Origin: Anaeromusa acidaminophila DSM 3853 | GTDB taxonomy: Bacteria > Bacillota > Negativicutes > Anaeromusales > Anaeromusaceae | Direction: 5' to 3' | DNA length: 64,000 bases | Assembly (NCBI RefSeq): GCF_000374545.1 | Contig: NZ_KB894582.1 | Span: 1-64,000, forward strand | Shown: in pieces, positions 48,141 through 53,250 of the stretch | Position numbering within the stretch: position 1 is the first letter of the stretch | How the letters are laid out: each line of letters starts with the position of its first letter | Program-made: the position numbers and the translations under genes | The notes under the pieces: generated by a model | The model's database searches: none | What the model was told of the DNA's origin: nothing | Seen by the model: the letters and a program-made list of their open reading frames with translations, nothing else

Positions 48141-48227
48141 AAGAAATTTTGGCAAGGACTAAGAGCGCTTGTAAGCGAACTGAATTATAGATGTGAAAAT
48201 GAGCGATTCTTTTTAGTGGAGATAAAA

Positions 48228-49441
48228 ATGATGTTGGAGACGATAAAGACAACCTATCCGGCGCTGACGCAGCGCGATTTTCGCTACTTCTGGTTTGGTC
48301 AGTGTATTTCTCTGCTGGGTACCTGGATGCAAGCGACAGCGCAGCAATGGCTGGTCTATTCGTTGACGAAATCGGCGTTGCTCTTGGGCTTGCTGGGAGT
48401 AGCTCAATATGGACCTATTATGTGTTTATCGTTGCCTGCTGGCGTTTTTATTGATCGGTATCCGAAAAAAAGTTGCTGCTATTTACCCAAGTTAGTCTTA
48501 TGCTGCAAGCTTTTTTTATGGCGTTGCTTATTTGGACCGAACAGGCGACGTACGAAAATATTCTGATGTTAGCTTTTTTATTGGGCCTAGCCAATACTCT
48601 GGAGCAGCCAACGCGTCAGGCGATGATGCCGGAGTTAGTCGGGCGGGATTATATTCGTAGCGCGGTGGGGTTGAATTCGGCGATTGTGAATGTAGCCCGC
48701 ATGGTGGGGCCAGCCTTGGCGGCGGCTTTGATGGTCGAATACGGCGCAGGGCTGCTGTTCTTTTTGAACGGAATAAGCTTTATTCCTGTGCTTTGGGGGC
48801 TGGCTTTAATTCAGACGCGGCCAGCGATTGTGCAGGATCATACGGCAAAGGTGCTGCAGGAAATCCGGGCTGGATTGATGTATGCCAGAACAAATCGGGT
48901 TCTTATGCAAGGCTTGCTTTCCATGCTGATCGTTTCGGTTTTTGTTATGAATTTCAGTATGATGGCCCCGTTATATGCAGCGGAAATTCTTGGAGAAGGC
49001 TTAGATGTTTACGGGCTGCTTTTATCCGCCCTTGGCGGGGGCTCTCTGGCGGCAGCCATCTTAGCGGCATCCCGTGCGCAAGGAAGTCCCTCCCTGAACG
49101 TATTGCGCGGCAGCGGATTGGCGGCTGCTGCGTTGCTAGTGGCGGGCACTTTTTTGCATCACGTAGCAGCGGCGGTAGTTTTATTTTCTTTATTGGGTTT
49201 TTGCTGCATTCTCTTTATTACTACGACCTTGTCATTGGTGCAACTTCATACGGAAGATGCTTTTCGCGGGCGTGTTATGAGCATTTATTCCTTTGTTTTT
49301 TTGGGAATTACGCCTGTGGGGAATTTGTTGACCGGCGTATTGATGGAATGGGCTGGTGCAGCCGGTGGGCTTGTTGCATGCGGTGCGGCAGCGATTATCG
49401 GTTTGCTGCTTATTGAGTGGCGAACCAAGAATAAGACCTAA
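48228..49441 (+). pseudogene. MFS (EntS/DUF894-type) exporter, frameshifted in an A7 run
   Basis: The frame starting at 48228 (MMLETIKTTYPALTQRDFRY) reads to PAGVFIDRYPKK and then loses the family pattern. The second frame resumes LLLFTQVSLMLQAFFMALLI and runs to 49441 with good MFS character. The change occurs at the seven-A run 48465-48471; eight A would restore KK-K-LLLFTQ. The combined protein would be about 404 residues. The cause may be a real mutation, a phase-variable tract, transcriptional slippage or a sequencing error. GTGGAG is the ribosome site; a terminator follows. Confidence 0.8.
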
Positions 49442-50486: not shown

Positions 50487-50669
50487 ATGTCGACTTATTG
50501 CCATAATGAAAAAAGCGTTTCTTTGTCGCAGCGTGAATTGAAAGAAAGCGCATTGGGAGACAAAGTTTTATTGTTGGGGACGTATGCATTTTTCGTAGCG
50601 TTACTGACGGTACTGATGGTATACGGGGTGCAGCAGGGAATGGTGTTTGATTCCGGCGCCTTGAATTAA
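50487..50669 (+). CDS. 60-residue single-span membrane protein
   Basis: The protein begins MSTYCHNEKSVSLSQRELKE, is followed by DKVLLLGTYAFFVALLTVLM as one transmembrane helix, and ends GMVFDSGALN. No family is recognised. The ribosome site AAAAGGGGATGGG is placed properly. It has a likely iron-regulated promoter and its own terminator, so it is a real small gene. An iron-transport accessory role would be inference from the promoter alone. Confidence 0.7.
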   Translation: MSTYCHNEKSVSLSQRELKESALGDKVLLLGTYAFFVALLTVLMVYGVQQGMVFDSGALN

Positions 50670-50726: not shown

Positions 50727-50924
50727 TTTTGGAAACGTCTATGGATAAAGAGCTGCAAAAAACAAGGACTTAAGTCTCAAAAATAGACTTGAGAGTCAAA
50801 AAATGGGAAGTTTTAGGCTTTTTTAAAGCAAGGAGCCTTGACGGAAGTCTTAAGAAAACGATACACTTGTTTTGAGAATTCTTGGAGATTCTTTTTGAGA
50901 CAAGCATATACTGTAAAATTGTAA

Positions 50925-51055
50925 AATAGCAAACTTGCTGAAAGGCAAGGACGCAAAGCCATGGATCTACGGACAGATGTCTATGATCGCCAGGTTGCCG
51001 ATTTTTTTGGTTCCGAATTCGACACTGGCCAAATCCTGGCTGGTGTCTTTTTTTT
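50925..51055 (+). promoter_or_regulatory. Cyclic-di-GMP-I (GEMM-I) riboswitch with terminator
   Basis: The sequence AGCAAAC then GGACGCAAAGCC is the hallmark of the GEMM-I aptamer (P1b stem and G20/C92 tetraloop-type core). It follows a TATACT box (50907-50912), is closed by CCAGG near 50991 and ends about 51003. A strong intrinsic terminator (51021-51055; GACACTGGCC and GGCTGGTGTC, then T8) lies 18 bases later, the typical off-switch layout. It precedes a 58-residue peptide gene and an EAL-HDOD gene. Ligand-bound folding should decide read-through. Confidence 0.88.
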
Positions 51056-51084: not shown

Positions 51085-51261
51085 ATGCCAGAGGAAAGCA
51101 TTTTGCTTCTTTTGGGACTTGGCGCTGCGATGTTGGCGGGATGTGGAGCAGCAGGCTGTTTTGTTTCTAACACCTTGTCGGCGCGGAGTCGGTTTAAAAA
51201 ATCGGCTCAATATGTGAACATGAATACCTTTCGTGTTCGACCGACTCCTCTAAAAAAGTAG
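51085..51261 (+). CDS. 58-residue membrane or lipoprotein-like peptide under the riboswitch
   Basis: The peptide MPEESILLLLGLGAAMLAGC has a hydrophobic stretch ending in LAGC, a lipobox-like tetrad, but no N-terminal basic residues, so lipoprotein processing is uncertain. The C-terminal tail is basic (FKKSAQYVN and FRVRPTPLKK). AAAGGAGG precedes the ATG. It lies between the c-di-GMP riboswitch and the EAL-HDOD gene, 11 bases before the latter. Function is unknown. Confidence 0.65.
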   Translation: MPEESILLLLGLGAAMLAGCGAAGCFVSNTLSARSRFKKSAQYVNMNTFRVRPTPLKK

Positions 51262-51272
51262 GCAGGTGCAGA

Positions 51273-52517
51273 ATGAATTGTAAAGAGGAAGCACAAGCGC
51301 AAATTCATATTGCCAGGCAGCCTATTTTTGACATGCAGCGGCAGGTATATGGTTATGAGTTGTTATTTCGCCGTACCTTGCAGAATACATACGATGGCAC
51401 AGATCCGGATCAAGCGACGCTGGATGTAGTGACAAGCAGCTTTTTGTTGTTTGGAATCGATTCCTTAACGCGCGGCAAGCTGGCATTTATTAATTTTACG
51501 GCTAATAATTTGTTAACGAAACTGCCTGCGATGCTACCGCGAGAGCAAGTGGCCGTGGAAATTTTAGAAGATGTAAGGCCGGATGAAGAGGTGCTGCGGC
51601 GTTGTCGCGAGCTAAAAAGCGCTGGCTATATGCTGGTATTGGATGATTTTGTTTACAAAAAAGAGCGGTTGCCATTGGTAGAACTGGCGGATATTGTGAA
51701 AATTGATTTTCGGGCTACTTCTACGGCGGAGCGCCAGCGGTGGCAGGGGCTTTTAGAGCCTTATGATCTTCGGTTTCTGGCGGAAAAAGTGGAAACAGAG
51801 GAAGAATACCAAGAAGCAAAGACTGCTGGCTACGCCTATGTCCAAGGTTATTATTTTTCTAAACCGGCATTAGTTTCCGCAACCTCGTTGCCTGCTTATA
51901 AAGCCAGCCATTTTCGCCTGTTGCAAGAGTTTAGCCGGCAGGAGTTGGAATTTGAACAAATTGAGTCCATTTTGCGTAAGGACGTATCGTTGTCTTATAG
52001 TTTGTTGAAATTTATCAATTCGGCATTATTTGGCTTTCGCCAGCCCATACGCTCGTTGCGCCAGGCGATGGTCCTGTTGGGGCGCAAAGAGCTGAGTAAA
52101 TGGGGCGCTCTTGTGGCGTTGAAAGATATTGGAGTGGACAAGCCAGGGGAATTAATCTTATCTTCGCTGGTGCGCGCGCGTTTTGCAGAGAAATTGGCCA
52201 TGCAGTGTGAAGGGGAAATTTGTACGGCCGATGCGTTTTTACTAGGTTTGTTTTCTCACTTAGACGCGCTATTGAACCGGCCATTGACGGAAGTGCTGTC
52301 GGAAATGCCGGTTAAGGAGGAAATAAAAAAAGCCTTTGACGAAGAGCCGGAGGGCATTTTGAGCGTACTATACAACCTGATGCAACAGTATGAACAAGGA
52401 CATTGGCAAGGAGCTGCCGCCTATGCTCAGAAGATGCAGTTATCAGAGGGGCAGGTTCTTTTGGGATATCGGGAAGCGTTACATTGGGCGCAGGATGTGT
52501 TCACAGGTAACTATTAA
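51273..52517 (+). CDS. EAL-HDOD signalling protein, paralogue 2
   Basis: The 414-residue protein is a paralogue of 36534-37754, with the same two-domain layout. EAL-region markers are YELLFRRTLQNTY, FINFTANNLL, AVEILEDV, MLVLDDFVYK, DIVKIDF, LAEKVETEEE and YVQGYYFSKP. The HDOD part has ILRKDVSLSYSLLKFINSAL and LRQAMVLLGRKELSKW. Its expression is placed under a c-di-GMP riboswitch, giving a possible feedback loop if it binds or degrades c-di-GMP. The ribosome site AGGTG is weak; the gene probably uses coupling with the peptide upstream. Confidence 0.9.
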   Translation: MNCKEEAQAQIHIARQPIFDMQRQVYGYELLFRRTLQNTYDGTDPDQATLDVVTSSFLLFGIDSLTRGKLAFINFTANNLLTKLPAMLPREQVAVEILEDVRPDEEVLRRCRELKSAGYMLVLDDFVYKKERLPLVELADIVKIDFRATSTAERQRWQGLLEPYDLRFLAEKVETEEEYQEAKTAGYAYVQGYYFSKPALVSATSLPAYKASHFRLLQEFSRQELEFEQIESILRKDVSLSYSLLKFINSALFGFRQPIRSLRQAMVLLGRKELSKWGALVALKDIGVDKPGELILSSLVRARFAEKLAMQCEGEICTADAFLLGLFSHLDALLNRPLTEVLSEMPVKEEIKKAFDEEPEGILSVLYNLMQQYEQGHWQGAAAYAQKMQLSEGQVLLGYREALHWAQDVFTGNY

Positions 52518-52537: not shown

Positions 52538-53032
52538 ATGGTAATGCGGAGTGTTTCTGTCTTTTTAGATCATATCATTGTCGCTTTGTTAGCTCCGGCG
52601 AATGCAGACTATTATCAGTTTTTGGATTTGGCTTCCGGCAGAGTGATGGTATTGAGCGCTAGAGAAAAAAAACAAACGGCTCCCAGGGGGCTTTGCGAAG
52701 AAGGCTGGTCGTTGCTGGAGCAGGAACCGGGCAGGTTTATTCCGTTGCTACCCCTAGCGCCGCAGCAAGTCGCTCCGTGGTATTCGGAATTTGCCAAGAC
52801 TTGTTGTCAAGGAGTACAACGGAGAGAACTGCTGCAATTATTAGAAGGTAGCGGATATTTGGCTCGCTTTTATGACGCGCTGGATTGTGATGATTTGCTC
52901 CGTGAAAGCTGGCGGCAGTTTGAAACGGAAAAAGTTCGCGCTTATTTTTTGACGTTAGTCCCTGCAGAGCTGGCAGTAGAATTTTGTAATTTTACGGAGC
53001 AAAAAGAAGGGGCTTTGAATGCTTTTGGTTAG
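52538..53032 (+). CDS. UPF0158-like protein
   Basis: The 164-residue protein begins MVMRSVSVFLDHIIVALLAP. It has a C-terminal part with the UPF0158 pattern RFIPLLPLAPQQVAPWYSEF, then LLQLLEGSGYLARFYDALD and RESWRQFETEKVRAYFLTLV. Family members are uncharacterised. It starts 20 bases after the EAL-HDOD gene with GAGAGG upstream, so it belongs to the riboswitch operon. A terminator follows. Confidence 0.6.
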   Translation: MVMRSVSVFLDHIIVALLAPANADYYQFLDLASGRVMVLSAREKKQTAPRGLCEEGWSLLEQEPGRFIPLLPLAPQQVAPWYSEFAKTCCQGVQRRELLQLLEGSGYLARFYDALDCDDLLRESWRQFETEKVRAYFLTLVPAELAVEFCNFTEQKEGALNAFG

Positions 53033-53070: not shown

Positions 53071-53113
53071 AAAAATAATCTGCAACTTTTGAGGAAGGGG
53101 CGGATTATTTTTA
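53071..53113 (+). terminator. Intrinsic terminator after the riboswitch operon
   Basis: AAAAATAATCTGC pairs with GCGGATTATTTTT with one wobble and T residues. Confidence 0.8.
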
Positions 53114-53250
53114 TGCGATAAAAGAAGATTATAAAATAAGAGAAAATGTATTTTTTCTTCGGGACATTATTTAAGAAGGTTTTTTGCAAGGAAAAAAGAA
53201 TTATCAGAAAATACAAGAAATAATAAAATTATAGAAAGCGAGGGATGAAC

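What the first reader, a model, noticed from the sequence alone, without database searches (positions are those of the whole stretch)
50925..51055. Cyclic-di-GMP-I riboswitch controlling a small peptide and an EAL-HDOD protein
The aptamer core (GCAAAC, GGACGCAAAGCC, CCAGG) is followed by a strong terminator. The regulated genes include a protein with an EAL-type c-di-GMP binding or cleavage domain. This would place a c-di-GMP enzyme or receptor under direct control of its own ligand, a feedback loop in a Negativicute.
Basis: partly seen in the sequence, partly recalled or inferred. Interest (0 to 1): 0.72.

Follow-up and report, generated by a model that had tools for sequence, protein, structure and literature searches.

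The report
c-di-GMP riboswitch before EAL-HDOD operon
This is a real but ordinary c-di-GMP-I riboswitch, an RNA sensor for the bacterial signal c-di-GMP, placed before a small operon that includes a protein able in principle to bind or break down that same signal; the anatomy predicts that the signal shuts the operon off.

Summary
Window 50918-51002 (+) is a full-length c-di-GMP-I (GEMM-I) aptamer (Rfam RF01051, 79.5 bits, cut-off 35, E 5.5e-14), followed by an intrinsic terminator (51021-51047 plus eight U) and a three-gene operon: a 58-aa single-TM-like peptide, a 414-aa EAL-HDOD protein and a 164-aa weakly UPF0158-like protein. All three other genomes of the genus searched, and a named Negativicutes MAG, keep riboswitch, peptide and EAL-HDOD; the aptamer is nearly invariant while flanks diverge. 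Aptamer and terminator do not overlap; the aptamer's P3 5' strand can instead pair with the terminator's loop and 3' arm (9 pairs here, 11 in congeners; more than shuffles give). This is the layout of the Cd1 OFF switch, so c-di-GMP most likely terminates the operon. The EAL domain keeps the residues I recall as catalytic, so phosphodiesterase activity is plausible but unproven; if true, the loop is double-negative and self-reinforcing. The genome has eight such riboswitches, two before GGDEF/HD enzymes and three before MCPs. EAL-HDOD orthologues in other Negativicute families lack the riboswitch, but some Bacillota MAGs flank EAL-HDOD with two riboswitches beside Tad pilus genes. New member of a known kind.

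The parts
50918..51002 (+). c-di-GMP-I (GEMM-I) aptamer; positions equivalent to Vc2 G20, A47 and C92 are 50929 (G), 50956 (A) and 50998 (C) by my count on the recalled Vc2 sequence
   Evidence: Rfam RF01051, 79.5 bits, E 5.5e-14, full model length; 1 of 73 columns variable at 50929-51001 in five genomes versus 31 of 129 upstream
50957..50966 (+). P3 5' strand AGCCAUGGAU, proposed 5' half of the antiterminator
   Evidence: pairs with 51033-51041 (9 pairs, one bulged U) in the predicted fold of the transcript cut before the terminator 3' arm is complete; more than shuffles give
51021..51047 (+). intrinsic terminator hairpin
   Evidence: 11-bp stem, 5-base loop; kept in the genus with a G-U to A-U change in one species
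51033..51041 (+). AUCC-UGGCU, terminator loop plus 3' arm, proposed 3' half of the antiterminator
   Evidence: complementary to the P3 5' strand; 11 pairs in G002 and G003, same sequence in G001 and the INTA MAG
51048..51055 (+). U tract of the terminator
   Evidence: eight T, invariant in five genomes
51085..51261 (+). 58-aa peptide, one hydrophobic stretch and a basic C-terminus; AGGAGG just upstream of the ATG
   Evidence: intact in five genomes, pS 0.16-0.17 versus pN 0.03-0.04; no Pfam or NCBIfam family; convincing homologues only in the genus
51273..52517 (+). EAL-HDOD protein, 414 aa
   Evidence: Pfam HDOD 4.9e-17 and EAL 9e-14; AlphaFold model residues 7-202 match EAL structures, Z 17-19; E29 N74 E96 K143 E171 Q191 invariant and D124 D125 at least 90% in 76 relatives
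52538..53032 (+). 164-aa protein, weak similarity to UPF0158 (below its cut-off)
   Evidence: Pfam 19.3 bits versus cut-off 21.1; full-length homologues only in the genus among 40 genomes
53074..53112 (+). terminator-like hairpin AATAATCTGC/GCGGATTATT that probably ends the operon before the MCP gene at 53245
   Evidence: read from sequence; the same hairpin with altered pairs is present in G001, G003 and the INTA MAG

Best explanation
A transcriptional c-di-GMP-I riboswitch of the OFF type heads an operon of a small membrane-type peptide, an EAL-HDOD protein and a UPF0158-like protein. Without c-di-GMP, the 5' strand of helix P3 (50957-50966) pairs with the terminator's loop and 3' arm (51033-51041), the terminator cannot close, and polymerase reads through. 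With c-di-GMP, P3 is held inside the aptamer, the terminator 51021-51047 forms and transcription stops. The EAL-HDOD protein is probably a c-di-GMP phosphodiesterase, so c-di-GMP would lower the amount of an enzyme that removes it (a double-negative, self-reinforcing loop). Shown by computation: the riboswitch, terminator, operon order, conservation, residue retention. Inferred: ligand binding, direction of switching, enzyme activity, loop behaviour.
For: Rfam match far over cut-off. Aptamer almost unchanged in five genomes while flanks diverge, Fisher p 2.8e-7 for 50929-51000. Terminator plus eight U, compatible with an intact aptamer in the predicted minimum-energy fold. Antiterminator pairing of 9 to 11 pairs reached by 15 of 5000, 1 of 5000 and 0 of 5000 shuffles for own, G002 and G003, and by 36 and 4 of 5000 hairpin-preserving random stems for own and G003; it is the predicted fold when the transcript ends within the terminator 3' arm. 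A coexisting aptamer and terminator that compete with an antiterminator is the stated logic of the Cd1 OFF switch (PMC9262584). The EAL fold and its acidic, Asn, Lys and Gln positions are kept; an EAL-HDOD protein with the same ELL motif, ZpdA, is reported to act as a phosphodiesterase in vivo (PMC12607878).
Against: No experiment. The free-energy model favours the terminated state even without ligand for the window's own sequence (-42.4 versus -34.3 kcal/mol for one forced antiterminator), so switching must be kinetic. The window's own antiterminator is weaker than that of its congeners. There are no compensatory changes in the antiterminator; its sequence is nearly fixed. The loop that follows DDF in canonical EAL domains (G-T/S-G-Y-S) is replaced by VYKKER, which I recall as a mark of inactive EAL domains. 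The promoter was not identified.
Confidence: 0.68

Rival explanations
1. The riboswitch is as described, but the EAL-HDOD protein is an inactive EAL domain that works as a c-di-GMP receptor or adaptor; the switch then tunes a receptor, and there is no metabolic feedback loop.
For: Loop after DDF lacks the usual G-x-G-Y-S; the EAL part is short, about 190 aligned residues against about 235 in solved EAL domains; solved EAL receptors such as LapD and FimX align as well as enzymes do.
Against: All positions that I recall as metal- and substrate-binding are invariant or nearly so in 76 EAL-HDOD proteins; an EAL-HDOD protein is reported to be an active phosphodiesterase in vivo (PMC12607878).
Confidence: 0.35
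2. The switch is of the ON type: c-di-GMP prevents termination and raises the operon, giving negative feedback if the protein is a phosphodiesterase.
For: Aptamers of this kind occur in both ON and OFF switches (PMC9262584); the predicted ensemble for the window's sequence is mostly terminated without ligand.
Against: The terminator lies wholly outside the aptamer (18 nt gap), so binding does not block it; the only supported alternative pairing breaks both P3 and the terminator, which makes ligand favour termination.
Confidence: 0.17
3. A non-functional relic or a chance match with a plain terminator.
For: None beyond the lack of experiments.
Against: 79.5 bits against a cut-off of 35, near invariance in five genomes, seven further intact copies in the genome.
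Confidence: 0.02

Closest known systems
c-di-GMP-I riboswitch, Rfam RF01051 (GEMM-I; Vc2, Cd1)
   Same: Full-length aptamer model match, tetraloop GAAA in P2, G at the position equivalent to Vc2 G20; terminator platform with aptamer and terminator able to coexist, as in Cd1 (PMC9262584).
   Different: Controls a small peptide, EAL-HDOD and UPF0158-like operon, instead of the flagellar operon under Cd1; the antiterminator proposed here uses the P3 5' strand.
EAL-HDOD proteins (ZpdA/VC0515, CdgJ and VC1851 of Vibrio cholerae, and the Geobacter and Bacillus proteins named in PMC12607878)
   Same: N-terminal EAL domain with an ELL motif (stated for ZpdA) and C-terminal HDOD domain.
   Different: zpdA is controlled by zinc (Zur) and quorum sensing (PMC12607878); here control is predicted to be by a c-di-GMP riboswitch.
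c-di-GMP-dependent decrease of a phosphodiesterase transcript in Clostridioides difficile (CD630_07570, PMC6200980)
   Same: A GGDEF-EAL phosphodiesterase transcript falls 5.1-fold when c-di-GMP is raised, the same sign as predicted here.
   Different: GGDEF-EAL protein; the passages read do not say whether a riboswitch mediates it.

Membership tests
c-di-GMP-I riboswitch (RF01051) | Covariance-model score over the curated cut-off, full length | tested here: met
   79.5 bits versus 35, model 1-87/87
c-di-GMP-I riboswitch (RF01051) | Conserved P2/P3 core with GAAA tetraloop and GGACGCAAAGCC junction | tested here: met
   sequence; alignment with 31 relatives
c-di-GMP-I riboswitch (RF01051) | G, not A, at the Vc2 G20 position (selectivity for c-di-GMP over cGAMP) | tested here: met
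   G at 50929, invariant in 32 sequences; PMC9262584 calls this position a selectivity factor, not a hard filter; the position was assigned by my own count
c-di-GMP-I riboswitch (RF01051) | Binds c-di-GMP and changes gene expression | not testable with these tools
   needs in-line probing and transcription assays
Transcriptional OFF switch of the Cd1 type | Terminator that can coexist with the aptamer and competes with an antiterminator | tested here: met
   criterion from PMC9262584; predicted structures only
EAL-HDOD protein | N-terminal EAL domain and C-terminal HDOD domain | tested here: met
   Pfam HDOD 62.5 bits (cut-off 22.9), EAL 51.8 bits (cut-off 31.3); EAL fold of residues 7-202, Z up to 19.1
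Active EAL phosphodiesterase | Metal- and substrate-binding residues E, N, E, D, D, K, E, Q | tested here: met
   E29 N74 E96 D124 D125 K143 E171 Q191 present; assignment of roles is from memory of EAL structures
Active EAL phosphodiesterase | Conserved loop after DDF (G-x-G-Y-S) | tested here: not met
   DDFVYKKERLPL in place of DDFGSGYSGLNLL; hence I do not file it as a proven or typical EAL phosphodiesterase
Active EAL phosphodiesterase | Hydrolyses c-di-GMP | not testable with these tools
   needs a biochemical assay

The most novel reading that the evidence does not exclude
c-di-GMP, through its own riboswitch, shuts off a phosphodiesterase that degrades it, giving a double-negative loop that could make the switch between motile and sessile states bistable; coupling of c-di-GMP-I riboswitches to EAL-HDOD genes arose at least twice (this genus; Bacillota MAGs with Tad pilus loci).
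Probability: 0.4. Interest if true: 0.45.

Novelty: new member of a known kind. Interest (0 to 1): 0.3.

Why it matters
It gives a compact, testable case in which a second messenger may control the level of its own degrading enzyme without any protein regulator, in a group (Negativicutes) for which the paper search found no c-di-GMP riboswitch work. The sign of the loop (self-reinforcing or homeostatic) can be settled by two standard assays. The recurrence of riboswitches around EAL-HDOD genes and Tad pilus genes suggests a wider c-di-GMP circuit worth mapping.

Tried and rejected
First riboswitch alignment mixed strands and was discarded and redone. The first AlphaFold model (10 sequences, pLDDT 69.8) was replaced by one from 76 sequences (84.5). 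An antiterminator between the P3 3' strand (GCCAG) and the terminator 5' arm (CUGGC) was considered; one congener (G002) breaks it with a mismatch and shuffles reach it more often. An inner helix UUUGGUU/GGCCAAA of the window's own linker is not kept in the congeners. General complementarity of terminator arms to the whole aptamer was mostly not above shuffles across the eight own copies. Sigma-70 promoter scanning gave no convincing conserved promoter. The small peptide has no family match and only marginal hits outside the genus; a similar-looking tail in a riboswitch-led ORF of L053 is a resemblance only. A weak sRNA match (NsiR1, 15.6 bits against a cut-off of 39) overlaps the terminator and is taken as chance. 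Two paper searches (Negativicutes with c-di-GMP riboswitch; EAL, HDOD and riboswitch) gave no report of this arrangement in the held library.

Full report
Observation. The window carries one Rfam match over a gathering score, c-di-GMP-I (RF01051) at 50918-51002 on the + strand, full model length, 79.5 bits against a cut-off of 35, E 5.5e-14. An 11-pair hairpin with eight T follows at 51021-51055. Downstream on the same strand lie a 58-aa ORF with a clear ribosome-binding site, a 414-aa EAL-HDOD ORF and a 164-aa ORF with weak UPF0158 similarity. A long-loop hairpin at about 53074-53112, kept with altered pairs in G001, G003 and the INTA MAG, probably ends the operon before the MCP gene at 53245.

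Is it under selection? In an alignment of five genomes (window, three congeners, and a Negativicutes MAG, L074), 1 of 73 columns varies at 50929-51001 against 31 of 129 upstream; for 50929-51000 versus upstream Fisher p is 2.8e-7. Some of these genomes are very close to each other, so the p value overstates the independent evidence. The terminator is kept, with a G-U pair changed to A-U in G002 (read). The small ORF is intact in all, with pS 0.16-0.17 and pN 0.03-0.04, so it is very likely translated.

How the switch should work. The minimum-energy fold of the full leader contains the aptamer helices and the terminator together, so the two can coexist. When the transcript ends within the terminator's 3' arm, the best predicted fold instead pairs the P3 5' strand AGCCA-U-GGAU (50957-50966) with AUCC-UGGCU (51033-51041); in the congeners this grows to 11 pairs because the loop reads AGAUCC. 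Such a run was reached by 15, 1 and 0 of 5000 shuffles of the terminator (own, G002, G003), and by 36 (own) and 4 (G003) of 5000 random stems of the same composition. These tests were designed after the pairing was seen. A terminator that coexists with the aptamer and is opposed by an antiterminator is how the Cd1 OFF switch is described, whereas in the pilM ON switch aptamer and terminator exclude each other (PMC9262584). I therefore predict an OFF switch. The energy model alone does not settle it: for the window's own sequence the terminated fold is favoured even without ligand, and rigid locking of the aptamer costs several kcal/mol at every length, because neither the ligand nor tertiary contacts are modelled.

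The regulated enzyme. Pfam finds HDOD and the second half of EAL. An AlphaFold model from 76 relatives (mean pLDDT 84.5, pTM 0.53) matches solved EAL domains over residues 7-202 with Z up to 19.1 (MucR, YahA, LapD, RocR, YkuI among them); both enzymes and receptors are in that list, so the fold does not tell activity. E29, N74, E96, K143, E171 and Q191 are invariant and D124, D125 at least 90% conserved among 76 EAL-HDOD proteins; from memory of EAL structures these are the metal- and substrate-binding positions. The loop after DDF differs from canonical enzymes. The EAL-HDOD protein ZpdA, with an ELL motif, lowered a c-di-GMP reporter in vivo (PMC12607878). I put phosphodiesterase activity at about 60%.

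Distribution. The own genome has eight c-di-GMP-I riboswitches. Their first genes are three MCPs, two GGDEF plus HD proteins, a 60-aa protein weakly like DUF3391, this operon, and one locus without a clear terminator or first gene. Three congeners keep riboswitch, peptide and EAL-HDOD; the closest EAL-HDOD relatives in other families (about 53% identical) show no riboswitch within the 1.5 kb held upstream. Peptide and third gene are essentially restricted to the genus among 40 genomes searched. Among 80 EAL-HDOD loci of genome contigs, riboswitches were found in 8 (11 matches). In Bacillota MAGs L080, L081 and L082 the EAL-HDOD gene lies between two same-strand riboswitches, the second before a CpaF-like ATPase gene with Flp-pilin-like and prepilin-peptidase-like ORFs further on; L078 and L079 show the first or second half of this layout on short contigs. 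In L028 and L029 (Negativicutes) the riboswitch lies downstream of the EAL-HDOD gene, before the next gene. The 80 loci were chosen by similarity, so no rate can be drawn from them.

Verdict. A correct reading of a real riboswitch; the class, its terminator platform and its use before c-di-GMP-related genes are known. What is added here is the operon's limits, the predicted sign of control, the genus-level conservation, and the wider pattern around EAL-HDOD genes. The feedback loop remains an inference.

Noticed in passing
L080, L081, L082 (and parts in L078, L079): In Bacillota MAGs an EAL-HDOD gene lies between two same-strand c-di-GMP-I riboswitches: riboswitch, transglutaminase-like ORF (L080, L081), EAL-HDOD, riboswitch, then Tad/Flp pilus genes (CpaF-like ATPase, RcpC/CpaB-like domain, Flp-pilin-like ORF).
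   Followed up: partly
G000 contigs C9, C2, C16, C28, C6 (loci L001-L014): Seven further c-di-GMP-I riboswitches in the same genome, two of them before GGDEF plus HD proteins and three before MCPs; two lie on contig C28 about 2 kb apart, pointing away from each other.
   Followed up: partly
L004/L012 (G000:C9:61315-61400, -): A high-scoring riboswitch with no terminator found and no clear first gene; a ribosome-binding-site-like stretch nearby could suggest a translational switch.
   Followed up: no
window 48216-49441 (+): Two overlapping ORFs in different frames (116 and 322 aa) look like one MFS-type transporter gene with an apparent frameshift, either a broken gene or a sequencing error.
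   Followed up: no
window 50487-50669 (+): A 60-aa single-TM-like ORF upstream of the riboswitch, without Pfam match.
   Followed up: no
L053 1887 (+): A riboswitch-led locus with a 60-aa TM-like ORF whose tail (FRKELKYVE) resembles that of the window's small peptide (FKKSAKYVD in congeners), followed by a probable HD-GYP-type protein.
   Followed up: partly
L029 1516-2736 (+): The search row for this EAL-HDOD match in G033 reports one in-frame TGA within the matched range, although an ORF of 406 aa is listed there.
   Followed up: no
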